Assembly (NCBI RefSeq): GCF_000204055.1
Contig: NW_006768776.1
Coordinates: 1,549,391-1,613,390, forward strand
Source of the DNA: Melampsora larici-populina 98AG31
Lineage: Eukaryota > Basidiomycota > Pucciniomycetes > Pucciniales > Melampsoraceae
Length of the DNA stretch: 64,000 bases
Direction of reading: 5' to 3'
The position numbers were made by a program, and so were the translations under genes. The notes under the pieces are model-generated. The model saw nothing but the letters and a program-made list of their open reading frames with translations, was not told the origin of the DNA and ran no database searches. Positions 3,892 through 64,000 of this stretch are shown here, piece by piece (positions within the stretch are counted from its first letter, which is position 1; each line of letters starts with the position of its first letter).

Positions 3892-3945
3892 AACTAAGGT
3901 CTGCGCCTTCTTCATTTCATTTCACAATGGGATTACCGCTACTCA

Positions 3946-5995: not shown

Positions 5996-6066
5996 CTGAA
6001 TTTTGAGAATGTGATTGAATTGCCTGGGAATGTGTATCTTGAATCTTCAAGGTTTCTTGTTTGACA

Positions 6067-6279
6067 ATCAACAAAAATTTTAGGTGTTGAGGATTATTCC
6101 CGTGAGATAATCTGAGTGCAGCTGTCGGTAGTCTGATGTGGAATACAGGAGGAAATTTTTCCTGCTATGATTTCCTCACAAGCTCATTCCACGGATAGAG
6201 GTACCGTCTCCCGGTACCGGAACTACCTCCGCTGCTACTCGTGGGCTTAAGAACCATTCGTGCCTCAAGGTTCTTTCAA
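6067..6279 (-). repeat. Split direct repeat A1 (5' terminus of the DIRS-type element)
   Basis: Same sequence and orientation as 117-329. Identity stops abruptly at 6279/329, where the flanks diverge, which fixes the element's 5' end on the minus strand. Confidence 0.9.
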
Positions 6280-7740: not shown

Positions 7741-7780
7741 TGAGCAGTTATTTGTTTTATAGTCTATCAGTCACCAGATT

Positions 7781-40000: not shown

Positions 40001-43000
40001 AGTCTCCATTGCCAAATTACTTCCCATTTGCTTTCTCAATAGGCTGATGGGGTTTGAATAATAATCAGCTTAAGTTTTGAAATTACTCACTTTCAAGGCA
40101 ATGATGGCATCTGCTGGAGGAATTAAATGGGTCCGCATACAGCTCAACACCTCATCTGCAATCACTTCTTATTTGTATGAATGGTGTTGACAAATTGTCT
40201 CAGCTTACAGTTTCAGAATGAAAAGCACAACTGTGATGAAGAAAATGATGTGAAGTCATTGCATCATCTACTTTTGTGCTTGTTATTTCAGAGAGACATC
40301 CATTCACGTCTATTGTTCTGAGGTGAACTATGACAGTTCAACTGGGTTAAATTAAGAAAGGTAACTGAGTAACAGCTTATGGATCCTAATTTTGTAAATT
40401 TCATATTTTGGATTTGAGTTTCCCATGGTCTTGAAAGCATATTGACCGTTGCTGAGAAGAGTTGATGAAAGTTGTTTGGTGTAACACCTGTCTAGCCAAA
40501 GAAACCCATTTGTACAAAGTATGAGAAAGGAGGTCAAAATCAATCATATCAATGTCATAGAACCAATGGAAAGTTTCTTACCATCAATTGTAAATTCAGG
40601 TAAAACTTTGGCTGATGGGATCAAGATTACATTTAAATCTTCTGGTGATGATTCTTTTGAATTAGATGCTACAGATCCTTTTATCTGGATATCTTTCCAC
40701 CATTAATGCATAAGCAAATTTTCATTGATGGTTAACTTTAAATTTCCTGAAATGTTGCCTAATCCAACTCCTGCAATCACCACTTCACCTGATGAACCTA
40801 ATCCTTGTCCGAATGGAATTTACTTTGATTTCATCTGATTGTAAGATGTATAATGCCACTCTTGTGATTAAATTTTGATATGGATCTTGGTTCTTCATTT
40901 GATCCTAAACCTTCATAAGTTAATTTACTTTTGATGTTAAGTTTGAATCAATTTGTCAGTTGATAGTCAAATGAAATGATATAGCTAATCCTAATACATC
41001 AAAACCCGGTCCTATATTTGCAGAAGTTAATGGAACTCGTATGATCCACTGTCAAATCAAATCTAAATCTCAAGTTAGATTCCATCAAGATTCCAATGAT
41101 GAATTGCTATGAGAGCTTAAAGAGAAGTCTACTTTACAAATCGATTTCATTGGTTCTTCTTTGAATGTTGTAGCTTGTCAAGTTGAGATTGAAAAGAACC
41201 TTTACAATCCGATTTGATTTAGTTATAATTAATAGGATGGTGTTTTCCATCTTGAATCATTTACAACATATTTAACAATCTTAAGTCTATCTTTTGATTT
41301 TAAATTTCCAATTTCTAAAACCTAATAACCAAAACCAACATCCAACCAAATCGAAAGAACAAAAAAATCAGTTTCAAAATCAAGAAGAGAGAAAAAAGAG
41401 AAAGTCAACAAACTCCTCCATGATTAGCAGTTTCTTCTTTCCAAACCGGTTCAACACCTTCATCATTTGATTTATCCAATCCTTGATTCTTTAATTCATT
41501 TTCCACAAACTCTTCTGCACTTTTATACGGTTTATCTGTTACTACATTAGTCACGAGTGATCAAGTTGATACTCTTAATCCTATATGTCTTCACGCAGTT
41601 ACTTCTGGTACTGTACTACAAAAAACCCAAACAAAAATAATGATTTAGTGTTTTTTGGTGAGTTTTGTTGGAGTTGAGAACTTGAGACTTACGACATTCG
41701 TACTACATCTGCTCGTGTACTTCTTATAAATTTTCCTTCTGCTCTTGTTTCATAAGTCGGACCTGAAACCTACAAAATTAAATCATTCACTCAAAGAGAG
41801 GATGAAAGGAAAATCCAATTTGTTAGTTCACTGAATAATAATTAAGTTGAACTTCATAGTGTGATAATTTCCCAAGCATAAATTCCTTCTATCACATCAC
41901 CCTTTTCTAATCCGATTTCGGGTAACGATCCAAACACTGATTTCCTAAGTTCAAGATCACAAGCTATTTAAAATAGATTCAAGAGGTTTTTTTGTTTGGT
42001 CAAGTTAGTTTGATCAGATTACAAAAATTGATTTTTTATGAGAATTAGAAAACGCTTAAGAATTTACCATCTGACATGGGTGGAAGAAGAGGACCAAGTG
42101 TATCTATATTAGGACCGATTAAAGGATTCCAAGAAGTCTGATTCAAAAATGAGTTAAAAAACAATCCAAAAACAAATTGATTAAATAAATCAAACAATTT
42201 GTTAAAAACTTACAATGGTAATGCGAGATGATCATCAAGTGCAATGATTTGTCCAACTTTTAAATTCGGATTCACTGCTCCTGCAGCATTGGTTACTATA
42301 AAACAAAAACAGAATGATTCAAGTGTTGATGTTAAAGATTAATTTTTTGAATTATATGATTTGGTTTAAATTGAACTTACCAATTACTGCTTCACAACCT
42401 AATGATTTAAAAATTCTGACTGCAAAGACTACATCTAAAAGTGGATAACCTCTAATTGAACAAAAAAACTTGGTTTAATATGATTATCTTGGTTTTTGGT
42501 CAAGGATTAAGATTACTTACTCGTAATCATGGAATCTATAATCGGGACCAATCAAAAGATAAAAAAATCCAATCCGAACAAAATCGTGGGATTCGGCTTC
42601 AGCATGCAACCGCTTACTTTTGTAATTGTGGAAACCGTGCATATAAAAAACTCCTGCCATTGTCCACTCATACCCGTCAGTTCGGAAATGATAGCATTGA
42701 TTGCTTTCAAATCGGGCATCTCGTTATCAATAGCAGCAGCGATTACATTTGAGGTACCAGACATTGCGCGCAGGGAAGGCTGTAGATTATAAGTGCGTTG
42801 AACGTTTCCCGCAAAAGATCTCAATCAACTTTGAAGTCCAATAGGCGAGTTGATTGAGGATGTTGCATATGAAGTTCTTGGAGTAGAAACATTGAGGTTG
42901 AATATGATCGATCTTGCTAGAGGGTTGTGAATCGTAGTGCCAGTAGTAAGAAGTTGAATGAGTGCTGGAAATGAGTAATTGGTAATCTTGTTCAATTTGT

Positions 43001-45690: not shown

Positions 45691-46011
45691 ATTCATCTGT
45701 ACCTCGCTTCTCCCATAACTCCCACTTCCACGACTGCACTCCCTGCAGAATATCTCCCTCAATGATCAACTAACCCATGACTCACTTCACAAAATATGCT
45801 ACAAGCCATACTGTACGACACCACGGCTGTGCATCATTTGAGGGGAGGATTCTGTCTCGAACCAAATTTTAGTAATTTGTCACGTGACCCCCTCCGTGAC
45901 TGCGCAAGTAGTCATCCACTCCATTCTCCTAACTTTTCCCTCAATCGTCTTCACTTTTTCTCAATTTTTTCATCACTTCTCTCGATCTTTCCCTTTCCGT
46001 CGCGCTCACCG

Positions 46012-47724
46012 ATGGACGAAGGACCCCCGGACCCCGATATTCAGGACGGTTCGGCCGTTCGAGATGACGCGTCGATGTATGATGACGCGATGGAGGCCGA
46101 GATCGCGACTGACCTGACGGGTCAGAAGCCGACGACCACGCCTCAAACGCGTCAACCGACCTCAAAGACCATCGATAAGGTCACCCTTCCCTCCCAAGCT
46201 CTCATTGGCCCGGTATCGGATCCTCCAGCCTTGCTGGAGGGCTCGAGAAAGCGACACCGACAACGAGCACCCTCGCAGAGCGGCCTAGACGAATCTGAGG
46301 ACATCACCGGTACCCCACGATCGATCAGAGTCGCTCGTCTGTTCCCAGGTGGCTCATCCAGACCACTCGGTGCCCTGGTACAGAAGCTGCTTGATATATC
46401 AAAAGCGGCTCTGGCGCCCAAATCCAAACGCGCGAAATCAGTCAACGTCGATATAGAATCAGCGGCTGACCTCCTCGTACTAGCTGGCTTGATCCAAGAC
46501 CAAGCAAACATAATGGAGGCACGACGTGTTGTGTTTGATCCACATCGTCCTACAGCCCCCACCCCTTCATCGCTTGCTTCGAATGCTCAGTTCGAATTCC
46601 GACACGAAGCGTTGTCAGAGAAAGTTGACACGCTCGCCGATCAAATGGCCAAGTTGGTGGCTGCTATTATACCAAACCAGCAGCAACAACAACAACAAGG
46701 CCAAACACAGCCAGGCCAGCCTAAGAGCTCCTACGCCTTAGCAGCATCAAAACACGCACCGGGACCATCCAAAGCTCCCAAACAAAACCAACAGAGCAAC
46801 CGTGCTCAACCAAAACAGAGCTCTCGCCCTAAATCGGAGGCTTCACTCACGCTCAATCAGCAGGACCCAAAGAATATCGCTGGCGCGGGAAAGACCATCC
46901 CTGAGCTAATCAAAATTCTCAACGAAACCCTTAAGACCAATAACATTAAGGTCGATACGGAAGACAAGTCAACCATTTTGGTTCGGAATATACACCGTCA
47001 CCCATCGGGAGACTTGGTGCTTTATCTCGAATCACAAAAACAAGTCCAGGCTCTGCGAAACCAAGCCGCAAGCTGGCTATCAAAAATCTCACCTAACCTC
47101 GCGATCAAGCAGGAGGTGCACTCAGTCATCGTACACGGTGTCCCCACCACCTTTAACCCCACTCGACCAGAAGACATTGAGCTCCTAAAGATATGCAATG
47201 GAGATCTCCTTGACGATGTCCTCTTTGTGAGGTGGCTTAAGAAAGATACGGCCGACGACACGGCAAAACGTCACTCCTCCCTTTTAATAGGCTTCAAAAC
47301 ACTCAGTCAAGCCACTCTAGCAGTGCGCACAAAAGTCTGGCAAGGGAGAGGCCGTCACAGAACGGAATTGAGCGGTCCCCCCCCCATGCGATGTTTCAAT
47401 TGTCAATGTGTAGGCCACACAGCGCCAGCTTGTAAAATAGCACCCATGTGTCCCTATTGTTCAGGAGAACACCACTCACACAATTGCCCAATAAAAGGCT
47501 CAACTGCAATGAAATGCACTTCATGTGCTCGTGGCAAAGTGAAAGCTGACCCGAGTGCCAATCTGACACGGCTCTTCAAAGAGAACCATGCAGATTTTCT
47601 GCATCATCCATTCTCGCCAACGTGCCCTGTGAGAATCGCTGGCCAGTTTCCCCCTCACAACCCTAGCTCCTCACCATATATTGAGGTGGTCAACGAAGCG
47701 GAATCATCTCGTACTCAATGTTAG
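46012..47724 (+). CDS. LINE ORF1, gag-like RNA-binding protein
   Basis: 570 residues from ATG 46012. The frame is open further upstream, to 45796, but the element itself starts at 45842, and 46012 is the first in-frame ATG inside it. The protein has an acidic N-terminus and a glutamine run (QQQQQQQ) near residue 220. At the C-terminus it has zinc knuckles: CFNCQCVGHTAPAC (CCHC), CPYCSGEHHSHNC, then CTSC. Such proteins coat the LINE RNA. It ends with TAG 47722-47724, overlapping the ORF2 start codon (ATGTTAG). Confidence 0.88.
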   Translation: MDEGPPDPDIQDGSAVRDDASMYDDAMEAEIATDLTGQKPTTTPQTRQPTSKTIDKVTLPSQALIGPVSDPPALLEGSRKRHRQRAPSQSGLDESEDITGTPRSIRVARLFPGGSSRPLGALVQKLLDISKAALAPKSKRAKSVNVDIESAADLLVLAGLIQDQANIMEARRVVFDPHRPTAPTPSSLASNAQFEFRHEALSEKVDTLADQMAKLVAAIIPNQQQQQQQGQTQPGQPKSSYALAASKHAPGPSKAPKQNQQSNRAQPKQSSRPKSEASLTLNQQDPKNIAGAGKTIPELIKILNETLKTNNIKVDTEDKSTILVRNIHRHPSGDLVLYLESQKQVQALRNQAASWLSKISPNLAIKQEVHSVIVHGVPTTFNPTRPEDIELLKICNGDLLDDVLFVRWLKKDTADDTAKRHSSLLIGFKTLSQATLAVRTKVWQGRGRHRTELSGPPPMRCFNCQCVGHTAPACKIAPMCPYCSGEHHSHNCPIKGSTAMKCTSCARGKVKADPSANLTRLFKENHADFLHHPFSPTCPVRIAGQFPPHNPSSSPYIEVVNEAESSRTQC

Positions 47725-50700
47725 AGAACCAGATGAAAGAAAAGCTCAATATTGACAATTCAGCTGGTATTCTTCAATTGAATAGCTGGCACAGCAAACA
47801 CGTTACACATTCTCTTTTCAATTCAGACCTCACTAATTCATTTTCCATCATTGCTCTTCAAGAACCTTATGTAAATCCTATTGACAACTTACCGCTCAAC
47901 CATCCTAATTGGACTCTAGTCTGTTCTTCTCCACGATCACTGAGTGAGGAGGACAGACCCCGAGCCTGTCTTTATATCAGACAAGACCTAAACGCCATTA
48001 TCAACCCCATACATTCATTATCCAGAAACCTCGCAGCGTGCACGGTTACTATCACTGGCTTCACTATCCTGATAGCCAGTGTTTATAACCCATGCAAAAC
48101 GCTCTCAGGCTTTGAAGCCTTCACCGAAATGCTCCACACGGCGCCGCTAGACACCCAGTTGTTACCAGCGGTGTGCGTCACTGACTCTAATCTTCATTCT
48201 CCTTTATGGAACCCAAGCCACAGCACCGTCGCCGACAAAGACTCAGAAAAATTAATCGAAATGATGACCGAATGGGGTTTTACCCTACGATCACCTAGAG
48301 GGATACCAACATTCGGAGTCCGCTCAACAAACACTCAAGGAACATCCATCGATCAAGTCTGGGTAAACGAAGATTTTGATGATGCAACACTGACATGTTT
48401 CATAGATGAGAACGACGTCCTAAACCACAACTCCGATCACCAAGCAATCGTAACCTGCTTCTCGACAATACTAGGAGACAAAGACACTGCTAAGTCTCAA
48501 TCCACTGAGAAAAAGAACTGGAACAAAGTTGACCGTATTTTATTGTTACAGCAACTGAAAACCACTTTACCAAAACTCAAACCACTTCCGACAAGAGAAG
48601 ACATTGAAACATTCGACATGGAGCTTCGAACAGCGCTACTGAACGCACTGAATGAGAACTCGCCACGAAAAGCAACATACGGCAAGCATAAGGCTTGGTG
48701 GAGGCCCGAAATTCTTGACCCACTCCGAAAAGAGGCTTCGCGACTTCGACGACGTGCCAAAAAGCTCGACACCGACGAGTCACGTGCCGACTACAAAAAA
48801 GCACGCAACATCTTCAACCAAGCAATTGACAAAGAAAAAGAAAATTCCTGGAGACAATTTCTCTCCAAAGTCGACCACACCAATCTTTTCCAGGCCAAGA
48901 GAATCGCATCAGGACGGAAACCATCCTCACTAGTTAGCACTATCATCACCCCTGATGGGAAGACGTGCTCAACAAATGATGAAAAGGCGAAAGCACTTTT
49001 CTTAGCCACCTGCGTGGCAACAGCACCATGCAGGTTGGACGACACTAACCACCTTGAATTCCCCCTCCTCGAGGATCAACGTCCGACAACCGAACTAACA
49101 CCCCCCTTTGTAGCATCCATCACGAAGGACACAATAGCGGCAGTCATCAACGATTGCCCGCCCAAAAAAGCACCCGGAATGGACGGAATCCAAAACTGGG
49201 TGTGGAAACTTGTTTGGGATCAAGTCAAATTACACGTAACGTTACTTTTCAAATGTATTGCACTCACAGGATTCATACCACACTCATGGAAAACAGCAGT
49301 GACGGTGATGATCCCCAAGCCAGGCAAGCCAGACTACACACAAGCATCGGCATACCGACCAATAGCGCTCCTCGTCACACTCAGCAAAATCTTTGAGAAA
49401 CTCCTCACGATCCACCTCTCAGCTTACGCCGAGAACCTCGGCATGCTCCACGACGGTCATTATGGTGGCCGCCCCGACAGATCCAGCCAGGAGGCATTAG
49501 TCCACCTGGTATCGTGGATCAAACGAGAATGGGCTAAAGGTAAGGTAGTTGGCGCTCTCTTTGCAGACGTCAAATCTGCCTTCCCATCGGTCCATCACCC
49601 TAGACTCCTCGACACCCTTGAGAAGAAAGGCATCAACACGCAGACGCTCAACATCTTACACGACTTTCTCGAATCCCGGTCAACAACGCTCACATTTAAC
49701 GGCTACACATCTCAACCCTTTCCCCTCGACCATGGACTTCCGCAGGGCTCCCCTCTGTCCCCCCTCCTTTACCTTCTTTACAATTCCTCCCTTCTTGAAA
49801 TAACTGACAACATTACTTCGGCCTCGGCATTAGGCTTCATTGACGACGTTGTTTTGTTGTCAACCGCAAGCGACACACATCAGTTGAAATCACAGATGCA
49901 AACACTGTCTTTTCGCCAACAACAATGGGCCAAAAATCACGGCGCGATTTTTGACATCAAGAAAACATTTTGGGTTCTATTTGGCTTACAAACACCTGCT
50001 TTCATCCCTACAATTGACTTTGCCGACAGGAAAATGATCGAACCGGCCCCTTTTGCAAAATGGCTGGGCATCAAAGTCGACAATCAACTCACCTTCAAAC
50101 AACACCGACTCGAAGTTATTGCAAAAGGACAACAACGAGCCGGTTTCCTAGCAGGTCTCTCGAAGACCGGCTGGGGCATCCCCCCTCACCTTATGAGAAT
50201 TCTCATAACAACCACGATCCACGCAGCGACCGATTATGGAGCCATGGCCTGGAACCCTACAGAGCCGTCAAAATTTCTCATTGACAAACTGACACAGATA
50301 GACAACACCTGCGCCCGAGCGGCGCTTGGAGCACTCAGCACCACACCAACAATCTTTCTCAGGCATGACATGAACCTCGTGCCCGTGAAAATACGCCTAC
50401 AAAGCAAAACTTTGAGCTTCATGGCACGCTCTTTAGCTAAAGCTAAATCACACCCCTTTTTCTCTCTTATCCAGCAGGCTCAGCATTCGAATCCGAAAAG
50501 CCACCGTAACCCTTTTCATCATTTCTTCCAACACTCTCTTCACACGCAATTCGAAGAACACGTGGTCCAACTGCCGGTGGACCCAGCCTCGACGCTAATC
50601 AGGCCGCCTAATTACTCAACAATCCTCCAGGAGGATGAAAACACCGCCACAAATGGGACGCTACGGCTTAAACCAAGCGGCCATCACATACTAATTTTCA

Positions 50701-51620
50701 CCGACGGCTCTCGTATCCCAAACAAAAACACGGCAGCGGCAGCATGGTGCGCTAACACCACGACTTCGACTGCAGACCACCTAGGCCCAGCACGTTTGCA
50801 AGGCATTTACCAGGCAGAGTACCGTGGCGTCCAACTGGGGCTGAAAATGGCCCTAGAAATGGCGACTCAAGCCACACACAGGACATCCATTATCCTTGAT
50901 AATCAGGGAGTGGTGAAAGACTTGAAATCTAACTCATCCTCCGTCTCCTCCTTAGATAACAGACAACAAACGTTTAAGATACTTAAATGCATTCATCAAA
51001 GCTTCCCCTTAATGAAAGTCACAATACGATGGTGCCCAGGACACAAAGGAATCCCGGGAAACGAAGCCGCCGACAAACTAGCCAACACACTTGCAAAAAG
51101 TGATCTACCCAGCACATTCACAAATACACCCAACTCAGCGGCATTTATCTCAGCCATCAACGAATGGAAACTCACACAAACCGAATCCTTCACCGACACA
51201 GAAATAAAAAGACTCGGCCACAAGCCCCAACCGAAAAAACACCTCAAGGCCTTATCAGAACTTCTCAAACATGAAGTCGCAACCATCACACAATTACGAT
51301 CAGGTCATATACCACTTAACGCATACCTGAACAGATTCAAGCAACCGATAGATCCACTTTGTGAATGCCAGGATGGCATCGAAACAGTTGACCACTTTTT
51401 ATTCATTTGCCAGTCACACGAACAACATCGAAATCAACTCGAACACAACCTTCTCAACCACGCTACAAGAAAAATGAACAAACAAATTCTCTCCGAACCC
51501 AAAAGTTTCAAAGCCATTGCCACTTTTTGCAACTCCACATGGAGATTTGCGAATCGCTGGACCTGGGCTAAGGCCACCAATGAACCCCGCCCCAAGAACA
51601 AACCCCAACCCCTAGAATAA
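47718..51620 (+). CDS. LINE ORF2: endonuclease, reverse transcriptase, RNase H
   Basis: 1300 residues. The N-terminal APE-type endonuclease has IIALQEP (residue 49), TDSNLHSPLWN, IDQVWV and NSDHQAI (about 239). The reverse transcriptase has FADVKSAFPS (about 615), GLPQGSPLSPLLY (673) and the active site FIDDVVLL (706). The RNase H has LIFTDGSRIP (about 993), YQAEYRGVQLG, ILDNQGVVKDL and CPGHKGIPGNEAADKLAN (about 1105). A C-terminal CECQDGIETVDHFLFIC motif may bind zinc. Every catalytic residue I can check is present and there is no stop. The ATG overlaps the ORF1 stop by 7 nt, suggesting termination-reinitiation. Confidence 0.95.
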   Translation: MLENQMKEKLNIDNSAGILQLNSWHSKHVTHSLFNSDLTNSFSIIALQEPYVNPIDNLPLNHPNWTLVCSSPRSLSEEDRPRACLYIRQDLNAIINPIHSLSRNLAACTVTITGFTILIASVYNPCKTLSGFEAFTEMLHTAPLDTQLLPAVCVTDSNLHSPLWNPSHSTVADKDSEKLIEMMTEWGFTLRSPRGIPTFGVRSTNTQGTSIDQVWVNEDFDDATLTCFIDENDVLNHNSDHQAIVTCFSTILGDKDTAKSQSTEKKNWNKVDRILLLQQLKTTLPKLKPLPTREDIETFDMELRTALLNALNENSPRKATYGKHKAWWRPEILDPLRKEASRLRRRAKKLDTDESRADYKKARNIFNQAIDKEKENSWRQFLSKVDHTNLFQAKRIASGRKPSSLVSTIITPDGKTCSTNDEKAKALFLATCVATAPCRLDDTNHLEFPLLEDQRPTTELTPPFVASITKDTIAAVINDCPPKKAPGMDGIQNWVWKLVWDQVKLHVTLLFKCIALTGFIPHSWKTAVTVMIPKPGKPDYTQASAYRPIALLVTLSKIFEKLLTIHLSAYAENLGMLHDGHYGGRPDRSSQEALVHLVSWIKREWAKGKVVGALFADVKSAFPSVHHPRLLDTLEKKGINTQTLNILHDFLESRSTTLTFNGYTSQPFPLDHGLPQGSPLSPLLYLLYNSSLLEITDNITSASALGFIDDVVLLSTASDTHQLKSQMQTLSFRQQQWAKNHGAIFDIKKTFWVLFGLQTPAFIPTIDFADRKMIEPAPFAKWLGIKVDNQLTFKQHRLEVIAKGQQRAGFLAGLSKTGWGIPPHLMRILITTTIHAATDYGAMAWNPTEPSKFLIDKLTQIDNTCARAALGALSTTPTIFLRHDMNLVPVKIRLQSKTLSFMARSLAKAKSHPFFSLIQQAQHSNPKSHRNPFHHFFQHSLHTQFEEHVVQLPVDPASTLIRPPNYSTILQEDENTATNGTLRLKPSGHHILIFTDGSRIPNKNTAAAAWCANTTTSTADHLGPARLQGIYQAEYRGVQLGLKMALEMATQATHRTSIILDNQGVVKDLKSNSSSVSSLDNRQQTFKILKCIHQSFPLMKVTIRWCPGHKGIPGNEAADKLANTLAKSDLPSTFTNTPNSAAFISAINEWKLTQTESFTDTEIKRLGHKPQPKKHLKALSELLKHEVATITQLRSGHIPLNAYLNRFKQPIDPLCECQDGIETVDHFLFICQSHEQHRNQLEHNLLNHATRKMNKQILSEPKSFKAIATFCNSTWRFANRWTWAKATNEPRPKNKPQPLE

Positions 51621-51950: not shown

Positions 51951-52263
51951 GGGCCCGTTTGGCTGGATTTTGAAAAAATTGTTACACAAAAACAATTTTT
52001 TGATCTGACCCTTGAAAAAGGGGCAGATTGAAAAACTCAAAATTTGGCTTTTTCATTTACCAAACAGTCGACCAATTTTTGGTCCCAAAAACAGCCTCAG
52101 GGCTGTTTTTCAAAATTGAAGATCTTTTGATCAAAAACCGTTTTTGGTTTTGATCAAAGACCATTGCCAAACACTGCTCTTTTTGTCAAAAACCAAATAC
52201 AGTTTTTGGCTTCGGTGGAGTATTTGGCCAAAAACCGTATTTGGTTTCCAGCCGAACGGGCCC
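51951..52263. mobile_element. 313-bp MITE with TAA target duplication
   Basis: The ends are GGGCCCGTTTGGCTGGA and inverted GGGCCCGTTCGGCTGGA, flanked by TAA on both sides (51948-51950 and 52264-52266). The interior is built of short inverted motifs (TTTTTGGT/ACCAAAAA). A 3-bp TAA duplication points to PIF/Harbinger-type mobilisation. Non-coding. Confidence 0.75.
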
Positions 52264-52833
52264 TAAGAACAGATGATTGGGGATTCTTGTGAATATTATC
52301 AACAGCCGACAGTTTAAATTGCCCTCTCTTCAGATCTTCAAAAGTTACAATAAGATCATATTAATATAGAAGGATGTTCATCATCCACACGCAAAAACAA
52401 GTCAGAAATGACTCGAAATCATGCTTGCCTAAGTGATGATCATATCTCAAACCCTTTTGTTCTTTCCCCACAATGCCTAAAGTATCAGTAATATAGTAGT
52501 GGTACATGTAAAAATAATCAACACAAGAAGGACAAAGATCTGGATTTGGCACTTCAATAATCTGTAGGACGAGAACAAGACCCGAGGTTGAAATTAGGGG
52601 TGGAAACCATTCTGATCAGTTCGTGGTATCACGGGGCAACAAGTGCGATTGTAACAAGAACTTACATGGGGACCAGCCTAAACCAATAGCAACGTAAATA
52701 GATATGCCAAACAAAAACCACAAGAGCAAGATACAAAGGGTTGTCATCAGCTCTTTATATTCATATTAAAGTCCTTTTGGCAAAGAAATCACACATAAAC
52801 GTACCACAATATATTGAACCTAGATTATTCATA
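52264..52833. other. Downstream flank of TEL1
   Basis: Nothing clearly coding. If TEL1 has another 3' exon carrying the end of FATC it should lie here; I could not identify one securely. Confidence 0.4.
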
Positions 52834-55800
52834 TTAGTTGCCTGATATCAGTTGATTTACCATTGTTTCCACATTCAAATTATCTGATAGTTTTTCTTTT
52901 ACTGAAGCTAAAGCTCTAGATGCACTTTCAGAAACCTTTGATTCTTCTTCTTTATTCTTTTTCTCTTGTTGACCTGTAAGTGGATAACACAATCCTGTTC
53001 CACCTTCATTTGTATCAGGATCATGTGATTCCTGTAGTTTTCTCGCTCTCTCTTCGGTAATCACCCTAAAAGCAGCAATTATAGTTTGATCAATATTCTC
53101 GTATGCTACTTTAACATCAAAGCATCAGAGACTCACCAGATTTGTAGTGGATCATGCTTCAGTACATCAATTATAGTCATCACTAGGTCCTTGTTTTCTC
53201 TTAACACACTTAAAGTGTGTTCACAACATCTCCTGAAAACGCCTTCAGTCTTTGTTGTTCCAAAACCATCAATTATATCTTGAGTTAATCAAAATGGTAC
53301 TTTCTCATGTGTTGGCAAGTGCCGACCCTACATTTTCATTACGACATACAACAAATTCATTAGAGCAGTTTCAATGGTAGTAAACCGTTTTGGCAATGTC
53401 CAACTGAAATCAATTAATGAAAAATGGATGAAACTCACCGCATCAAGAGCTATTCCCAAATCAATCTGAATCATATTGCCCGTTTCTTTATCCAATAAGA
53501 TATTAGACAAATGTCGATCTCCTAATCCTAAGATATGTCCAACAATAGAAGCAGTGGTTGTCGTCCTCATATAATTTAATCTCATTTTGTACCACTTCTG
53601 ATGACAAGTTTGTGATTCCATAAACCAGAACCTCATTGCTGGACGGATACATTTCATGACTTCTTTGAATGAGGCGATTCTTTTAGATTCAGATGCATTC
53701 CTTTGAAAACCTAAGTAACTTTGGGCGCGCTTCAAGTCCCAGTCTGGGAGTTCATTGTATCTAAACATATGTCAAAAGCAATGTAGAAGTAGTCGGCTAT
53801 CAACATCAAAAAAATGTTTTGCGGAGTTTCAATCCCTCAAGATTGAAACTCACTTTGCGTGAAGAGGAGTCAGCGTAGCCCCTAGCGCTGAAGTGTTAGT
53901 CACAAATTCTATCAGGCCGGCTTCCTCAGCTAATGGTATCACCTTGTATGTGTGAAAGTTCAAGCGTCTTTTTCAACACTCTCCATCGCGTGTCAAGACT
54001 TGATTGACTAGGTCAAATACTTGCTCCATGACCGCATCCTGTCTTATGTCGTCACCACCTTTGAACTGTAAGAGATGAAAACCAACTCGTTAAAATATCA
54101 CGGTGCTCTGAATAGCTCATCAAACGGATCCTGATAGATTCAATAAATCGCTCACCAATTGTCTGTAAACGCGTCCGTCTGATCCTCGACATTCGGTGAT
54201 CTTGGGTGCATGAAGACCCTGGGCAAGCTTGAATTCAAGTTGATATCCTGTGATGCAGACCATAGAATCTGGATTATATTTGCAAGTAAGGTCGATTGGT
54301 AGATGAGCAGTTGAGAATGGTATAGCTTTGTTCTTGATCCCAATCAGTTTGATTCTTGAAGGAATTCGAAGTGATCCACTCTGTGACTTTGTTTCCATGT
54401 TACGTTTTACATCGTACTGCGCCCATTCCGTATAAGCATCAAAAACGTCTATCAAGCTTACCACAGTTGCTTGACGAAGATAATGATTATGTACAGCGGT
54501 CAGGACGCCATTGGCAGCTTTTGCACGCGATAATTGACTAGGCGTCAAGTCATTGGGTACGGGATGTTGTTGAGACGTACGTCGGAGGTGTGTATTTGAT
54601 TCTGAGCCACTTATCGCGGACTGAATACCTTGCCGTAACAGTAATATCTGGGGTAAGCAATGAAACGGATGCTGAAAATACATTCGCGTTACCAATTTGA
54701 TCAAGACCACTTGGAAGTTGGATTTGGTCTCTATGCTCAGCCGCGCTGATAGCTGGTGGGCTACCCGTACAAATTTATGCATAGGGACTTTTGTGATGGG
54801 GTTTGAGAGAACTTTGTTCAGTTCATCATCATCCGAATGATCGAACCAAAGTGATACAAAGCTAAAAACCACATCATCGTGTTGATCCCTGAATGCCAGT
54901 GAATTGAGATACATCTGTAAAGCACCATGGAGATACCCTCTTTGCATACAAGAATATCTTTCTAGTGATTTACAGTCTTCATCATAAATCCTTTGTTTCC
55001 ACTTGAGAGCGTTTCTGTCAGCTCTATTGGAAGCCTTGTACTTCACCGATGCCGAAAGCCGTATGGTGGATTTTGTCAATCAAGCGACCTCTCCAGAAGC
55101 AACCACATCACGATACTGTTTATCAGCAAATGTGGCATATGTGAATGAGACCTGACCAAATGCAGCTGGATCTGATTCTCAATCTAGGACACTGATTGCT
55201 TTCTCAAAGTACCGTTCAATGATTTCTTGGGGTGTATATCTCCTCTCAGCCCCCATCCAATTGCCCTGCAGAGTACAACAACCGTGCATGAGCAAGAAAT
55301 GTAGGCAAAATGATCCAAGATGAACCACTTACAAGGAAAGCTAGCTGAATTGCAGCTTGAGATGTTGAAGTCTGCTGTGATTGTACGTCTTCCAACATAT
55401 TCAAAGCCATCGAGTGTTTTCCTTTCATCCACAAGACTTTGGCAAATTCTTCTTTGGCCTCTAAAGCAATTTGTGTCATATCTTCACTTCCCATCATCTT
55501 GGTCGGAACAATGATGTTGAGAGCATTCTGAATGCGACCAGACAGTCGCGCCTCTTGGGACGTCTTTATTCGCATCTTCTGTTCTATCTGTTGTGCTATA
55601 CGGAATGTAGCATTTGGTTCATCACCAATCATGTTTTGCATTTGCTTATCCATTTCGGTCTGGAGCAAGCTCCTTTGAACCACTGATATCAGTTCAAGGC
55701 CTTTGTAACTGAAGCAAGACGATGATCATCAGTATGAGGACATTGCTACGTGTTCCGCACTTCATCAGAAAACCGAGCACTTACTTGCAACCTTGTGGTA

Positions 55801-58800
55801 GATCAATAAGAGTCTCCATGTACTTCTGTCTTTAGACTGCACCATTGTTTTTGAGCCAGGTCAAGATTTCTTCAAAGGCTAATTAAGGCAGTCCCGATAA
55901 CTTTGGCATCTGGTTGGAAAAACACTACCGGGCTATTGACCAGGTCTTTGAACTGGCCGATAAGACATTGGTTTACAATTTCTGATTGAATCCGTAAACC
56001 TCTTTGACGATTGACTGCTTGCAGAGCTCCATACAAGCGTGCAGAGGAGTCAAAATCAGGTTGGTCCGCTTGAGGAAGGTCCCACTCTGACGCTTGCCAA
56101 GCCAATTCAAAGGGTAAACTGTAACATTCTTTCTCCAGAAGATCTCGAGCAGGATGTGCTGCCTCCTTTGAAGATGCTGTTTGAAGCACCTGATACGCGA
56201 GTTGATCGAGCCCACATCCAGAGTGTGACTGAGCGAGTGTGTGAATTGTTTTAGCTCGATGCGAAAGGTCCGAACCCTTTCCCTGTAGCTGATACCAAAC
56301 ATGGAGTCCCACTCTCCCTCATGAGAGCTTTTTTCCAGTAACCAGTAAGATGGGTCGCGCGGAGGAAGACTGTAGAATGCATCTGGATCTAGTGATGACG
56401 AGTAAAGGAGATGAAAAACGTCTTGAAATTCTTTTTCAGTGCTACTTATCAGACTAGTTATTTCATCTCCTTTGCGTGCAATTTCCAGGAATAAGAACCC
56501 CATAGATGGCATACCCAGACAGGTTGCTTGCTTAACTAAGAGCCGCCAAGGTACATCCAACCATCTATTGCAGCCAAGGGGATCTCCGTCAGGTGTTGGA
56601 CTCAAGCGTAGATAAGTGATTAGATCGAGAAGTCTATGAATGACTGATTCTGATGTCGAAGCTGATTGAAGTAGTGCACAGACATGCTTGGACAAGTCAT
56701 TCTTGAAAGAAGCTTGGGGTGAGACCAGATCTTCGAGGAGACAAGCGTGTACAACACATGGTAAGACGTCTGACGCAATAGTATCATCAATCTCTAAAAT
56801 ATGAGAGAGTTGAGCAAAAAAAGGCCTTTTGCGCAATCAATCAAAGATCAGTATCTTCAAGATCCCTACTGTCCACTCGGGAGCTTGATTGGCGATTGCG
56901 ATAAGTGAGGAAAAATCAGACCAAGACTTGATCAAATGGGGTATGTATAGATCATGGGTACGATAGCAAGATGAGGAGAGTATGAGATTTGTTCTGTCGT
57001 GAGACAAGCGCGGTAGTTGAGAATGATATTGTTCAAACTCTGAGAGCTTCTCACACACGCCCGCCCTCCGAATGAATTCTGTTAAGCAAAACAAAAGGTG
57101 CAAATCCTCAGTTTCAAGACGCGAAACAACCAGGGCAAAAATTTGATGAATTGTGTTGTGGCGGCTATCAAGATATTTCGATCGACCAGTCAATATTGGA
57201 CCCCACGGAGTACGCTGCCCCAGAAGCGGTGGATTCAGGTTGCCAGAAATTTTTGATAGCAGCTGAAAATACAACACGGTATTCTCTAGCAAAGGCTTCA
57301 CACACAACTCGCGGGCCAAGACAAGAAGGGTAAAGAGCAGCTGACCAGCTTCAACTCTATCTCCAGGTAGTCCGGATGATACAATGTGTTTGATGAGCTT
57401 GAAGTTGAAGGATGACGCGCTCTCCACACACCTTCTACTTAATAAATCTTTCACATCGGGGATTTTACACTGCAGCATTGACACATCCGGCCAATACAGT
57501 AGCAAAGCATTTCCTATCAAATGCTGCGGATGATTGGCTGAATCACATATCAAATTGACCTGGGCAAGAAGCCACTCATTGAACTCCTTTGCAATAGAAA
57601 CATTGCGGTCTTCCGGCGTCCCTGAATTAGCAACGATCAAAACTTTTTTGACGCAGGCGATTATCAATCTCTGAGTAAAGGTATTCTGCTCTTGATGGCC
57701 AATCTCCGGGGGACGTTCCAGTTGGATTATCTTCTCGATGATCCACTTTGCAAGTGTGCACACAGGTACAAATGTAACCTCTTCTGAGAAAAGATGTAAG
57801 AATCCCTGGAGGAGTAATGTAAGAATGGCTTCAGATTTTTGTACTACTTCATGTGACAATGCAATAAAAATCGTAATTGTAAGCAGATAGCGGAGATGGT
57901 CGTTCACAAAGGGCGAGGCGGAGATTTCGGACAAAATGTTACTGATTACACTGTACACCACAGTGGGTTCATGAAAAACAGGATATAATTCATCAACCCA
58001 TTTTATTGCTCATACATTGGAGAGAATTGGGCAGAACGGCAAGGCGGGTTCAGTCAAATAGCAAGTTTCTAGTGTTGAACTGAGAGCTGAATATAAGTCC
58101 TGAGCTTCTGGACCCAACGTATCAGCAACCATCTTTGTATCAGCCAGAGTTGCAGATGACGTTAACATCAAGTAAGTAGCCACACAATCTCTCTCAACAC
58201 TGAGCATATCGATCTCGAGCTCACATTGGGAGGTGGCAAGTTTAAGCATTGGTAAGATGATCTGGCCGGCTTGCTCTTTTCCTCCACCATCATGACTTTG
58301 AAAAGTCCGTGCTATCAATTCGCCAGCAACTCGAGGAAAACACAGACGCAACACTTCCCTTGTGTTCATGCCAGCGAGCTGAGCACAAGTTTGAAATGCA
58401 GATGTGTCGTCATTGAGATAAAATAAGGGTCCGACAGCATGAAGATTTGCGCGGATGACTTTGAGCTTCTTGAAATCATTCAGATCTCTGCCGATGAAGT
58501 TGTGTTGTGGATGCAGTGGTTCTTTGTTCATAGTATGCCGTTCTGCAGCAATATGAGCAGCATACAACTTATAAAGCTTGTCAGGCCCCGAAAAGCCGAG
58601 GCAATGAGAAGCACATTTCAACAGTGTGTATATGAGTGAACGACAAAGCACCTGCTCCGAAGTCTCCGCCTTCTCCGTCACGTTACTGATCAACATCTGG
58701 TACGCTTGTGGTCGCGATTCAGCGCTTACTAGCAAGACGTTGGCGAAGAAAAGTGATGTGGTAACCGAGTATTCATAATCAAAAGTATGTGTCAAATCAA

Positions 58801-61800
58801 TTGCAGTTGACCAATAAGATGCGACCCGATCCCACACGTTGATGGAGTGCAAGACTTCAAAAGCATGAGGAATTAAGAATGCGGCAGCATATCGAACTTG
58901 AATGTTATCATGTTGAAGATGATCTATGAGGAGGTCAATAGGTAGCCTCAGGTTGCCTTGTAAAGCCTTCAGAAGATATGTGGTGGACTTCTTATTCCAA
59001 ATTTCTTGGGATGGATCAAATTCTAAGTAAGCGTCAAGCAGCAGGGCCAACTCAAGCTGAGCCTCTGAGTGCATTGTATTTTGAGACAGTAGGCCGAGAA
59101 AATGCGAAAAAAGCGTCCAAGCATGATGATCTAACTGAAGTTGTTTGGTCTGCTTTCCCAAAGCCCAATGATGTAAGCTGACGCGCAAGAGGCGGATTGC
59201 AAAGATTTGAATGTACATATTGTGCGAATACGCGTAAGGCACCATGTATCTTTCACCCACATATTGAATTAGCTGATCTGATTGGACCTCTGTCAGTGAC
59301 ATCAGGCTGACATCAATGCACTCTATGACCCGCAGTCCAATGAGCTCAATAGCTGTACCTGAGCACTCTGTGAGGATAGTAGCAATGACAGGTATGTCTA
59401 TCGTATTTGACATATCACTGCCGACCTGCACGCTAGCTCCGGTCATGAGCACACGAACGCACACATCGACAATTGATTTAATCGTTCTCTTCATTCCAGA
59501 CCCTCCCAGCTCTGTTTTGAAGGAACACTTTCCATCCAAGAAGTCCCGGCAGTTGACTTGCATGTCGGTGTCAGAGTTGTCATCATTGTTGTCATCAAAT
59601 CCTACTGCCCTTTCCCCTATTTGGGTACTTGTAAGGTTGACTTCGGTGGCGCCCGGGGCTGAGTTGACACTGCGTAATATACGTTCACAAATTTCAGAGA
59701 AGTTGAGAAACTGAGCTTGAAGGTCGGCTGAAATAGTCCAAATGGAAGTGATCAGGCTGCGGTCAGGGAGCATGGGCAAAAACCGCTCAGATGCCAGAGT
59801 TGTGCGAGTTGAACGGGTTGCTTTTGAATCGGCGAGCTTGTGACGAGGTAGACCCAAGGCCAACCCAGGGGATAGAAGACTATGTTTTGATACTTGATTG
59901 TTGGATTCTGGAGAGAGAAGGAGGATAGGCTCAAAGCACGATAACAAAATCACCAATTGAGTAATGGACCAAGTGTGAGCCTCGAGAGCCTCATTCACTA
60001 TAGAAAAAAGCTTTCCAGCTGAATCCAAGGTTTCATGATGAGGTCTGATCCCAGATGAGCGTCAAGAATTCTCAAACAAGATTCCAGCCATCATTACACC
60101 AATTGCTACTTGAATGCTGGTCACAGAACCGGAAGCAGAATTCAGTCGCTGCGGTTCAGTATCAAAGATTTGACCAATCACACTATCAATAGATTGGGCC
60201 AGTATAACGGAGATTCTGTTCTGGATTTCTGACCCCGGAAGTAGATCGGCTACGTCGCGTAAATCGGATAAAGGAACTCGCAAGCTCAACAATGACTCTG
60301 ATGATGGTATAGATGACGAGATGTGATTGAAATCAACCACTTCTTGATGATTTGATAAGGCTCTAATCGCCCGAGTGTCATCTCTGTAGATGAGTGATTC
60401 AACCAGTGGACAATTGAGGACCATGCAAGAGTAACCAAGCCGAGGTAATCTCTTCATTTTTGTCAAGCATAGTAGAAGGGCCATTGCTGACTCTGGATGA
60501 AAAACAGTCATAACCGCCTTTTTGGATCTTGCACCAGTCGAGGCGCTCTCGACCGCTGTGGTAGAGTCGACTTTCCGCCATGTCTTTGATAACCAAATGA
60601 GCACCTTTTCTTCAAAAAGAAATCCAGAGAAGGCCATATCCCCAGCTGTCATTGACAAACACTCCGAGACCAACAAACAAACCGAGTCATTCGGGAAGTT
60701 TGGACCTTGTACGCATAAATCACTGAAGAAAGTTTTGATGCCGTCATACATCAAATGATTAGGAAGATGTCCGTTTTTTAAGATCAGCAAGGCTGCGTAG
60801 CTCGCCGTACGACTGCATTGTGGAGTGGAGGTCCTGCGGATCGCACATTTCCACATATCAAACCATTGGTCAGACGTAGGGCCCCCATCTTGGAGTAGAT
60901 TGGTCTGTGATCCGTTGGAGGAATTATTGACTATTTCATGTGTCTGCAATCAGAAATGTTCTTTCAGTAAATTTGATGGTGGTTGAAGATGAAAGCTCAA
61001 ATCTGACTCACAAAGGAGAGGTTGGTGATACATAGAAAGACCCAATCTAGAATTTCCGTATTCTCCGAGTTCATCAGGTCTAGGATGGAGTGGATGATTT
61101 GCGACTTGGCGCTTGCGTGAATTGTAGTCCAATTCAAGTCGATAGCGAATATCACAAGTTGAAGTCGACGTATGATACTTGGTGACGAATGACCTTGCTT
61201 CATTGTTTGAAGGAACATATCGAGATTGTCTTCAAGCTGTTGACTCAAAGCTATTAGATCATGTTGAAATATCTGAAATGTTGAATCATTGTATCATTCC
61301 ACGCACCTTTCAACGTTTCCTTGGACTCAGAACGCTTGGTTCTATGCGGGCCCTATTGTTGAGATTGATAATACATTTCAAAGCAGCAGCGCCCAGTTGT
61401 AGCGAAGCCCACGAAGTAACTCGATGACGTTGAGCAATATCATCAGAAGGATCAAGTGAGACCCAAGCCCAAGTCTTTGTACTGAGTGGCGTCACTTTCA
61501 TTCCACTGAGCGCTTCTGTGAAGCGAAGTTGTGAAGATGAGAGAGTATTGAGTCCAACTCTGTCCGTATCATTTACAACAGCATGGAAAATTTTTCTCGC
61601 AAGTGTTTCGGCTATTGCAGAAGCTTCTTCAGATTCATCGGAGCTAGGTTGTTTGATGATCCAAACGATGAATGGGAAAAGGTAGGTCAGGGCAAGTATG
61701 ATCCTTTCTTTGCATTCAGAAGACTTTGTAGTCCAGTAATCCATCACGCAGTTCCACAAATCGGTGGCGAAGTGGGTCAAATCGGAAATCTGGTTGCACT

Positions 61801-62557
61801 CTAGTTCTTCCAACATTGCACATAAAGCAGAGATCAAATGGAAATGTGATGTAGAATTTTCAGGATAGGTTTGAAGAATAGACTTAAAGTGATGGAGAAG
61901 TGTCTTAGAGTGCGTGATGGTCAGATCTGTTGGCGATTTGGTGATGAGTGATAAAAGCCAAGTGCAATCAGCCAACATGGTAGGGACTGGCCGTGACGCG
62001 ACTCTCACTTCTTCATCGTTGAATTCAGAATTTGGAACCAAAAGAAGTGTTTTGGGTATCTTCTTGCCCAGTAACAATGCAAAACACAGACAAATCAATG
62101 TTGAACATTTTGAGATATTCAAGTGCGCAAAATGATAGGAGTGAGAGAAAAAATCACGCATAATGCGGATACAGTCTATGGTGGTGGGTTGGAATTCTTT
62201 CAGCTGATATATGATAGTGATGAGGTCGATGACTCGAGGAAACAGTAGCTTCGAAGTTTTTGCGCCCATTGCTGATTTATGTTGTGACACACATGTTTGA
62301 AGCAGGCCCAACATCTGATCGAGACAAACCAAACAAGCAGACCTAGTGGATGTGCTCTTCGCGGTCTTGGAAGGCTTGTGGTATGCCAATCTTTCCACTT
62401 CCATCGTGTTGAGAAGCTGACACGTTATCCAAGCCCAGGTAGAGTCTGAACATTTTTTAAATTTTGAAGGGTTTGAGAGTAAGTCGCTAAATTCTTTAAT
62501 CCCTTTGTTTCTATCTGTGATTGTGGCAGAGCTCAAGCGATAGAGCGCCTCATCCAT
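52834..62557 (-). pseudogene. TEL1: TEL1/ATM checkpoint kinase gene with eight in-frame TGA codons
   Basis: Tel1/ATM is the PI3K-like kinase for DNA double-strand breaks and telomeres. ATG 62557 opens with LSSATITDRNKGIKEFSDLL, a TAN-type motif. Long helical-repeat exons follow (62557-61305, 61272-61012, 60943-55790), then the FAT domain (LAWQASEWDL, YFEKAISVLD, YATFADKQYRDVV) and the kinase domain: GSDGRVYRQL / FKGGDDIRQDAVMEQVF, GHILGLGDRHLSNILLD, IQIDLGIAL and [17 protein letters not shown]. It ends in a short FATC-like tail (LNVETMVNQLISGN). In-frame TGA lies at 61310, 60062, 58010, 56837, 55179, 55080, 53973 and 53289 (left coordinate of each). There is also a TAA at 55832 and two frame changes near 56270 and 55890. 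The last two TGA replace arginines conserved in TRKRKL and VPFRLT of ATM. Identity as Tel1 rather than Mec1 rests on these motifs. Confidence 0.82.
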
Positions 62558-62918
62558 TGAGTCAAATCAAATTGGTTTTTGAGTTCCAATCACCGCTGTT
62601 GAAGTTGTTTATCATGCGTTGACCACTTTGGTGGACCTGTTGATGTAAGTTTTGATGGTCACATTCATGGATAAAGCGACTGAATTTGTAGAACGAAGAA
62701 CATTGTAAATATATAGCAATATATGTGTTGATTTGACTTTTGAAATCTTTGAAGTGATCAGTTGAGAAATGTGTGTTGATTCAGATTGAGATTTGAGAAG
62801 GGAATTACAGAAGGAAAACACTATTTGGGAACCGGCTTTTTAAAACCAAAGCCCGGCGTTTTTTCAGTACTTACCCGCACATTTGTTGTGGTTTTCTCAC
62901 AAACCCAGACCTCCTGTA
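62558..62918. other. TEL1 upstream region
   Basis: Nothing coding. It contains the putative TEL1 promoter. Confidence 0.4.
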
Positions 62919-64000
62919 AGAGCATCCGCACTCGTGCGGTAAATCGAGTGCGGTAAGGTTAAATTTAACGCAACCGCGGGGTCTTTTCCGCACCGGTGAA
63001 CAATTAGCCCCGCGGTAGTTAATTTTTCATCAGTTTGCGTTAGCGAATCGGTAAGAGCATCCACTATCATGATGGTGATTTATCGTAAGTTTTGCGTTCC
63101 TGACCGCGAAATTTAATCACGCGTGTTTTACCTAAGTTGGTAACCGCATGAAATCCACTACGGATTGATGTAATGTCTGATTTAACTACGATAAATCACT
63201 GTGAATCAACCAGATCCACAGTGGTTTGATTTTGCGATGATTTATCATATCTTTCTCACAAATCCCATCCGAAAAACCATCCATCAGATGCCCACTACAA
63301 GTTCCTTGAAGAGACACATCGACTGTCTTTTGAAGTCTTCAAACCACAATGATGAGGAACATCAAGAATTTGAGCAACTTGTCTAGAAATCTTGTTTTAT
63401 AGGCTTCACACACCACCTTCACCATTTCAGACTCAATTCCAAACAGATTGAGCTCGAGCTCAGCCTACTCAGCAATTGACTATTGTGCACCTCAATTCTT
63501 AAGGTGTCTCGCAAAAGATTAAGATATAGGGTGATGTTGTGATTGAAATCGATTCAATTCAAAGTGCAATGTTCCGAGATGTGATATCTCGAAGTTGAGA
63601 TTTGAGGATGAAGTTTGAAATTTGAAGTTCGAAAGTGAGGTTTTGATGTTTGAAGTTTGAGAAATGAAGTTTCATATGCAGTTTGAAGTTTTGGGAACAG
63701 TAGTTTCGACTTGATTTCCTACGATAAATCAAGTCGTAGGCTTGCGTAGATTTGAACACACGGAGAGCAAGATTTGATGCAGTCGTACGGACCGCAAGTC
63801 TAAAACAGGTCCATAGTGGACCTGTGTATAATTTAGCGTTAAAGTTACGATAAATCACTTGGTTACCGCACCCATAGTGGATGCTCTAAATCTACCAATT
63901 GGCTAACGCATGCGGTAGCACACATCACGACCTGTTCACAGCAACTACAACTCCAAAAACTCAACTCAGCCCAATCTCCAATACCAAAGTCAACAACAAA
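62919..64000. mobile_element. Possible outer TIR element around the MITE, right end not found
   Basis: Starts TAA-GAGCATCCGCACTCGTGCGG. TTGCGTTAGCGAATCGG (63035-63051) and the inverse-like CCAATTGGCTAACGCATGCGG (63895-63915) flank the inner MITE, as expected if the MITE landed inside a foldback-like element. The right end is beyond or near the window edge. Confidence 0.35.
63055..63886. mobile_element. 832-bp MITE with GAGCATCC termini and TAA target duplication
   Basis: The left end GAGCATCCACTAT and the right end (inverted GAGCATCCACTAT) are flanked by TAA on both sides (63052-63054 and 63887-63889). GTGATTTATCGTAA-type subterminal motifs occur in both arms (63069 and inverse at 63844). 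No transposase; the small frames inside lack motifs. The target type again suggests PIF/Harbinger mobilisation. Confidence 0.7.

What the first reader, a model, noticed from the sequence alone, without database searches (positions are those of the whole stretch)
53289..61312. TEL1/ATM gene broken by eight in-frame TGA codons with a TpCpG mutation signature
The gene is otherwise recognisable end to end, yet its long frames are separated by TGA only: left coordinates 61310, 60062, 58010, 56837, 55179, 55080, 53973 and 53289. Seven of the eight are preceded by T, so the parental codon would be CGA in a TCGA context. Two align with arginines that are near-invariant in ATM/Tel1 kinases (before KRRLNFHTYKVIPL and in VPF-R-LT). 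RIP-like C-to-T change at TpCpG is known for transposable elements of Pucciniomycotina. Here it would have struck a single-copy DNA-damage checkpoint gene, perhaps by leakage from the flanking transposon cluster. Alternatives are allelic loss in one nucleus of a dikaryon, or stop readthrough.
Basis: partly seen in the sequence, partly recalled or inferred. Interest (0 to 1): 0.88.

Follow-up and report, generated by a model that had tools for sequence, protein, structure and literature searches.

The report
Rust-fungus TEL1 gene, dead and hypermutated
In this rust-fungus genome assembly the only copy found of TEL1, the fungal version of the human ATM DNA-damage checkpoint gene, is a dead gene whose mutations are concentrated at one three-letter DNA motif, which suggests that a mutation process best known from transposons can also wear away an ordinary single-copy gene.

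Summary
The window (a rust fungus, 98.3-Mb assembly, species not established) holds TEL1/ATM on the minus strand, about 62557-52665. All eight reported in-frame TGA codons are real; seven follow a T and seven align with arginine in the closest open orthologue (P0036, 83% identical). One TGA (55179) aligns with proline, and the arginine at 53973 is not invariant. No second copy was found in the assembly. Nine other rust-type records hold full-length TEL1 models. With Cronartium to polarise changes, 46.5 of 155 single-step changes on this lineage are CpG transitions, against 2 of 87 on the P0036 lineage. Detectable TpCpG sites changed at 33%, other CpG sites at 9%, non-CpG cytosines at about 2%. 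The TpCpG/TpTpG ratio is about half that of gene stretches in the same genome; other CpGs are nearly normal. Conclusion: a recent unitary pseudogene with a RIP-like TpCpG signature. Whether the mutation process killed TEL1 or arrived afterwards is open: other non-genic DNA here is as depleted or more. The adjacent LINE-like element is not depleted, so leakage from that side is unlikely; the low tract runs the other way, past a MULE-like frame. TGA recoding or readthrough is very unlikely.

The parts
52665..62557 (-). TEL1/ATM locus, unitary pseudogene; start codon at 62557, FATC end approximate
62108..62554 (-). TAN domain, still open
   Evidence: PF11640 E 2.1e-26; only TAN match in the assembly
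53136..54068 (-). PI3/PI4-kinase domain, interrupted by two in-frame TGA; the GDRH...N and DLG stretches still match P0036
61310..61312 (-). in-frame TGA, preceded by T; one codon before an intron
   Evidence: column R in 10 of 12 orthologues with a residue there
60062..60064 (-). in-frame TGA, preceded by T
   Evidence: column R in P0036
58010..58012 (-). in-frame TGA, preceded by A (the exception)
   Evidence: column R in P0036
56837..56839 (-). in-frame TGA, preceded by T
   Evidence: column R in 11 of 13 aligned orthologues
   Evidence: column Q in P0036
55179..55181 (-). in-frame TGA, preceded by T; column not arginine in P0036
55080..55082 (-). in-frame TGA, preceded by T
   Evidence: column R in P0036
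53973..53975 (-). in-frame TGA, preceded by T; column R in 5 of 13, Q in 8 of 13
53289..53291 (-). in-frame TGA, preceded by T; column R in 12 of 12 with a residue
56270..56300 (-). frame change in the FAT region
   Evidence: homology to P0036 continues in another frame
55870..55895 (-). frame change
52838..52848 (-). frame change inside FATC
   Evidence: two overlapping alignment pieces in different frames
63054..63887 (.). recent 834-bp MITE-like element about 500 bp upstream of the TEL1 start
   Evidence: 14-nt perfect terminal inverted repeats; at least 8 near-full-length copies elsewhere at 99-100% identity (40 of 345 candidates scored)
52001..64000 (.). stretch of low TpCpG, continuing to about position 70000 in window numbering
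   Evidence: 2-kb bins over window + L011 + L012

Best explanation
This is a unitary pseudogene of TEL1 (ATM) in a rust fungus. Shown: it is the only copy found in the assembly, it carries nonsense and frame-changing lesions, and its amino-acid changes show a strong C-to-T bias at TpCpG on both strands. Inferred: TEL1 evolved as a normal gene for most of the time since the split from the P0036 lineage, lost function recently, and has been exposed to a RIP-like, CpG-directed deamination process that prefers TpCpG. CGA arginine codons are the only codons that CpG transitions turn into stops, which explains why TGA dominates the lesions. A MEC1/ATR-like kinase gene is present and would have to carry the shared checkpoint functions (inference).
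For: Single copy: pieces 58013-60061 and 53000-57900 each hit one place; one TAN domain. Lesions: 8 TGA, 1 TAA, 3 frame changes. Nine other rust-type records hold full-length models of 3026-3090 aa, P0028-P0036. Polarised with Cronartium: CpG transitions 46.5 of 155 single-step changes here against 2 of 87 on the P0036 lineage, p = 2e-8; with five outgroups 44 of 151 against 3 of 96. Rates: TpCpG 0.33 (95% 0.24-0.42), other CpG 0.087 (0.046-0.14), excess of all non-CpG changes 0.006 per site (-0.001 to 0.0135). Nonsense change at TpCpG is not rarer than missense change: 2.5 of 9.5 against 31 of 93, weighted, p = 0.71. TCG/TTG ratio 0.34 in TEL1 against 0.57-0.87 in 8 gene stretches, p = 1e-15; other NCG 0.47 against 0.38-0.72, p = 0.03.
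Against: The 8 control stretches were chosen by availability and their end-to-end intactness was not tested; a wider Sec6 stretch with introns and flanks gives 0.49. One TGA column is not arginine and one TGA follows an A. Non-genic stretches of the window are as TpCpG-poor or poorer, so the signature may be the fate of any unprotected DNA here rather than a targeted hit.
Confidence: 0.85

Rival explanations
1. The RIP-like process itself killed TEL1: a hypermutation burst spread from the upstream MULE-like side, or followed a transient duplication, and hit the working gene; frame changes came later.
For: TpCpG change (0.33) far exceeds the excess of other changes since loss (0.006 per site), which suits a burst. 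TpCpG is low from about 52 kb to 70 kb and lowest at 66-70 kb, around and beyond a MULE-like frame (65876-66694 in window numbering), recovering over NOC3.
Against: The frame changes and the TAA cannot be ordered relative to the TGAs. The adjacent LINE-like element and the MITE are not visibly hit, although they may be younger. No duplicate is present now. Other non-genic bins are as low.
Confidence: 0.35
2. TEL1 was lost first by an ordinary lesion; the unprotected locus then decayed by 5-methylcytosine deamination with a TpC preference, as other unprotected DNA in this genome does.
For: Bins at 6-10 kb and 36-42 kb are more depleted (0.04-0.15) and 22-28 kb about equal (0.33-0.40). Non-TGA lesions exist. 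A partial MEC1-like copy shows a milder bias of the same kind: 17 of 138 TpCpG, 10 of 151 other CpG, 40 of 1128 non-CpG.
Against: The contrast between TpCpG and other change is steeper in TEL1 than in the MEC1 copy or the LINE pair (22 of 137, 30 of 271, 129 of 1516); those pairs are not polarised, which inflates their non-CpG counts.
Confidence: 0.45
3. The lesion is allelic (one nucleus of the dikaryon keeps an intact TEL1) or the lesions are assembly errors.
For: No reads could be inspected and the assembly holds one version of the locus; how haplotypes are represented in it was not tested.
Against: A clean context bias over 9.7 kb is not a sequencing-error pattern. The protein search that reached full-length rust TEL1 listed nothing nearer than P0036 (best 120 of 2323 listed).
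Confidence: 0.2
4. TGA is read as an amino acid here (recoding or readthrough), so the gene is functional.
For: Most lesions are TGA and kinase motifs are still recognisable.
Against: A TAA and three frame changes. Other long frames in the genome are uninterrupted (691, 920, 1164 and 1311 aa).
Confidence: 0.01

Closest known systems
RIP-like TpCpG hypermutation of transposons in Pucciniomycotina (Horns et al. 2012, not held; cited in PMC5381629, passages)
   Same: C-to-T (and reverse complement) preference at TpCpG, both strands
   Different: Here the target is a single-copy host gene in a rust; no repeat of it exists today
RIP leakage into genes beside repeats in ascomycetes (papers, listing only)
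   Same: A gene near repeats carries repeat-type transitions and stops
   Different: Rusts lack RID and DIM2 according to PMC12210899 (passage); the nearest LINE-like element here is not depleted
Loss of cell-cycle and DNA-repair genes in Hanseniaspora yeasts (PMC6528967; title and start of abstract only)
   Same: Loss of conserved genome-stability genes in a fungal lineage
   Different: Here one recent pseudogene with its mutation signature still visible, with MEC1-like and MRE11-like genes present
Tel1/ATM kinases (PDB 6sky, 6jxa, 5np0)
   Same: TAN, kinase and FATC regions recognisable in order
   Different: Reading frame broken at 12 places (9 stops, 3 frame changes)

Membership tests
TEL1/ATM | N-terminal TAN domain | tested here: met
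   PF11640, 93.4 bits against a cut-off of 27.1
TEL1/ATM | PIKK kinase domain closest to Tel1/ATM | tested here: met
   best PDB matches are Tel1, then ATM, ahead of MEC1/ATR, SMG1 and TOR
TEL1/ATM | FAT domain | tested here: inconclusive
   below cut-off in one piece (21.3 against 24.2 bits); the region aligns to P0036
TEL1/ATM | FATC domain | tested here: met
   aligns to the FATC end of P0036, with a frame change inside it
TEL1/ATM | continuous reading frame | tested here: not met
   8 TGA, 1 TAA, 3 frame changes
Unitary pseudogene | no other copy in the genome | tested here: met
   limited to this assembly, in which some stretches read N
Unitary pseudogene | open orthologue at the same locus in relatives | tested here: inconclusive
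   full-length models in 9 rust-type records, 6 named and 3 unnamed; synteny not tested
Unitary pseudogene | fixed in the species, both nuclei | not testable with these tools
   no reads or second haplotype
RIP-like TpCpG hypermutation | C-to-T excess at TpCpG over other CpG and non-CpG | tested here: met
   0.33 against 0.087 and about 0.02
RIP-like TpCpG hypermutation | both strands affected | tested here: met
   22 G-to-A and 11.5 C-to-T at TpCpG, read on the coding strand
RIP (repeat-induced point mutation) proper | target is repeated DNA | tested here: not met
   TEL1 body is single copy now
RIP (repeat-induced point mutation) proper | RID/DIM2 methyltransferases | not tested
   reported absent from Pucciniales in PMC12210899 (passage)
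RIP (repeat-induced point mutation) proper | composite RIP index above 0 | tested here: not met
   -0.69 to -1.00 over the six bins 52001-64000 and negative in all 42 bins; the index is built on other dinucleotides

The most novel reading that the evidence does not exclude
Rust fungi have an active TpCpG-directed hypermutation process, without RID or DIM2 and invisible to the usual composite RIP index, that can spread along a tract into a single-copy gene; in this species it destroyed the ATM-type checkpoint kinase, which left the cell relying on the ATR-type kinase.
Probability: 0.25. Interest if true: 0.78.

Novelty: new variant of a known kind. Interest (0 to 1): 0.56.

Why it matters
A 2025 comparison of rust genomes reports almost no RIP-like signature in Pucciniales (PMC12210899, passages), while earlier work on transposons describes a TpCpG signature for Pucciniomycotina (PMC5381629, passages). 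A dead single-copy gene with open orthologues is a cleaner test bed than old repeats: the direction of change is known, and here the TpCpG bias is clear while the composite index stays negative. It also makes loss of the ATM branch in a rust testable by resequencing.

Tried and rejected
Rejected: TGA recoding or readthrough (TAA and frame changes). Rejected: stops lying in introns; at eight of the nine stop columns homology to P0036 runs on both sides in the same exon, and at 61310 the exon goes on for one matching codon before an intron (and by eye). Rejected: a retrocopy; nine candidate introns with GT...AG ends are still present (read by eye). Rejected: simple leakage from the LINE side. 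An in-frame TAG that I first suspected in the MEC1-like gene sits in a plausible 66-nt intron (read by eye) and was dropped. Corrected on checking: an earlier comparison of stop and missense rates (6 of 17 against 27 of 85) mixed two column sets; one search replaces it, with the same conclusion.

Led nowhere: a protein search with the 683-aa piece found nothing at E <= 0.001 among the 7996 candidates scored. The RAD50 zinc-hook family gave no match and the full RAD50 family did not complete, so RAD50 is undetermined. Species identity is not established. Literature: no held paper has both 'Melampsora larici-populina' and 'Tel1'; the titles and abstract starts listed (20 of 24; 10 of 49) show no TEL1 loss in a rust. 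Horns et al. 2012 is not held.
Full report
What is there. The minus strand from 62557 to about 52665 encodes a TEL1/ATM kinase: the first piece carries a TAN domain (E 2.1e-26), and a downstream piece a kinase domain whose best solved relatives are Tel1 and ATM. The window belongs to a 98.3-Mb, 243-contig assembly. Its relatives place it among the rusts: over the mapped codons TEL1 is 83% identical to the unnamed P0036, 52% to Cronartium quercuum (P0035), 36-42% to the Puccinia, Austropuccinia and Phakopsora proteins and the unnamed P0001, P0031 and P0032, and 25% to two other basidiomycetes. The species was not established.

Checking the finding. All eight TGA codons are at the stated places and in the TEL1 frame, and seven of eight follow a T. 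Codon-by-codon mapping of P0036 covers 3001 of 3033 residues and shows ten stops: the eight TGA, a TAA at 55832-55834, and one at 53133 that is an exon edge at an intron and was dropped. There are also three frame changes, near 56288, 55885 and 52843. So the claim that TGA alone interrupts the gene is wrong. Seven of eight TGA columns are arginine in P0036; the one at 55179 is proline there and varies elsewhere. In the 13 aligned orthologues the 53289 column is R in 12 of 12 with a residue, the 56837 column R in 11 of 13, the 61310 column R in 10 of 12 with a residue, and the 53973 column R in 5 of 13 and Q in 8 of 13.

Copy number. The pieces 58013-60061 and 53000-57900 each match one place in the assembly, and the TAN family matches once. 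The piece 60100-64000 matches elsewhere only through sequence at or beyond 62914, upstream of the start codon; 40 of its 345 candidates were scored. No haplotype copy was found. Nine other records hold full-length TEL1 models of 3026-3090 aa, P0028 to P0036: six named rusts and three unnamed. The C-termini of P0033 and P0034 look irregular (by eye); P0001 is partial and P0002 ends inside the kinase domain.

Mutation spectrum. I polarised amino-acid differences with Cronartium: if P0036 and P0035 agree, the change is on this lineage; if this sequence and P0035 agree, it is on the P0036 lineage. Changes that need more than one step (8 and 11) were set aside; where several single steps were possible they were weighted. 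On this lineage 163 changes give 155 single-step cases: 59.5 transversions, 46.5 CpG transitions, 21.7 other C-to-T or G-to-A, 27.3 reverse transitions. On the P0036 lineage 98 changes give 87: 48, 2, 17 and 20. The two lineages are similar except for CpG transitions (p = 2e-8). With five outgroups the result is 44 of 151 against 3 of 96. The P0036 count uses contexts from this CpG-poorer sequence, which lowers its opportunity somewhat (69 of about 102 detectable TpCpG sites remain).

Context. Among sites where a C-to-T would change the protein, 33.5 of 102.5 TpCpG sites changed (0.33), 13 of 149 other CpG sites (0.087), and about 22 of 1133 non-CpG cytosines (Fisher tests on rounded counts). 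The TpCpG to other-CpG ratio is 3.7 (bootstrap 2.2-7.1). Both strands are affected (22 G-to-A, 11.5 C-to-T), and hits are spread over the gene. Arginine has another codon one step from TGA, so each TGA counts only half in these weighted figures. Stops arose at TpCpG no less freely than missense changes: 2.5 of 9.5 against 31 of 93 (p = 0.71), or 3 of 14 against 49.5 of 147.5 over all columns (p = 0.55); counted without weights, 6 of 17 in-frame sites at arginine columns preceded by T are now TGA and 11 are still CGA. So selection no longer acted visibly against stops when these changes accumulated, or they came in one burst. The numbers are small.

Composition control. The ratio (TCG+CGA)/(TTG+CAA) is 0.34 in TEL1 against 0.57-0.87 in eight gene stretches of the same genome (MEC1-like L024, TRA1-like L015 and L029, NOC3 in L011, the long frames of L032, L033 and L030, and the Sec6 frame), p = 1e-15; the ratio for other NCG is 0.47 against 0.38-0.72, p = 0.03. 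These stretches hold long open frames, but their intactness was not tested end to end, and a wider Sec6 stretch (12000-17000) gives 0.49. Sec6 and NOC3 are Pfam matches and the MEC1-like gene bears a UME domain; the other labels are my reading. In 2-kb bins over the window and the next 20 kb, the ratio is low from 52 kb to 70 kb (0.11-0.39), lowest at 66-70 kb (0.22, 0.11), around and beyond a MULE-like frame (PF10551 in L011 1876-2694), and rises over NOC3 (0.40, then 0.79). The LINE-like element next to the 3' end (45781-51620) is not depleted (0.71) and holds a 1311-aa frame; the name LINE is my reading. Against a targeted process: 6-10 kb and 36-42 kb are far more depleted, in all CpG contexts; 22-28 kb and 74-78 kb are about as low as TEL1.

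Comparison with other DNA. A partial second copy of the MEC1-like gene (C70) differs from the main copy by TpCpG loss at 17 of 138 sites, other CpG 10 of 151, non-CpG 40 of 1128; in the opposite direction the counts are 4, 10 and 54. The LINE-like element against its nearest copy gives 22 of 137, 30 of 271 and 129 of 1516, both directions added. These pairs are not polarised, so their non-CpG figures are inflated; still, TEL1 shows the steepest TpCpG contrast of the three.

Timing. The excess of non-CpG changes on this lineage over the P0036 lineage is 0.006 per site (bootstrap -0.001 to 0.0135), so TEL1 was constrained for most of the time since the split and died recently (inference), while a third of detectable TpCpG sites have gone. 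The TpCpG rate is about 24 times the upper bound of that excess. This is more than slow decay alone would suggest to me, but cause and aftermath cannot be ordered with one genome.

Other checkpoint genes. A MEC1/ATR-like gene is present on C39 (UME domain in a 691-aa frame; kinase match). MRE11-like exons lie in order on C52; the DNA-binding matches pass their cut-off, the full-length model is matched exon by exon below its cut-off, with stops listed inside some stretches that may be introns. The RAD50 zinc hook was not found and the full RAD50 search did not complete.

Literature. TpCpG RIP-like mutation is described for Microbotryum and, citing Horns et al. 2012, for Pucciniomycotina (PMC5381629, passages). 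A 2025 study finds RIP-like signatures in under 0.5% of Pucciniomycotina genomes by the composite index, RID and DIM2 absent, and DNMT1 and DNMT5 present with one exception (PMC12210899, passages). Over the TEL1 bins that index is -0.69 to -1.00, below the threshold of 0 used there, so it would not see this signature.

Verdict.

Noticed in passing
window 63054-63887: A very young 834-bp MITE-like element with 14-nt perfect inverted ends; at least 8 near-full-length copies elsewhere at 99-100% identity and many older ones. It sits about 500 bp upstream of the TEL1 start.
   Followed up: partly
L026 (C70) 2166-5570: A partial second copy of the MEC1/ATR-like gene, 89-92% identical, with a milder TpCpG loss.
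   Followed up: partly
L027 and L028 (C52): A 5.3-kb segmental duplication at 99.9% identity next to the MRE11-like gene, with a second match to one MRE11 segment.
   Followed up: no
L011 6559-9001, L012 4631-5266, window 13448-14374: Neighbouring genes NOC3, RAD51 and Sec6 keep long open frames with Pfam matches.
   Followed up: partly
window 6001-10000 and 36001-42000: Stretches almost free of TpCpG (ratio 0.04-0.15) and poor in all CpG, contrasting with 1-6000 (0.94-1.28).
   Followed up: no
window 45781-51620: LINE-like element (my reading) with a 1311-aa open frame directly 3' of TEL1; nearest copy 85% identical.
   Followed up: partly
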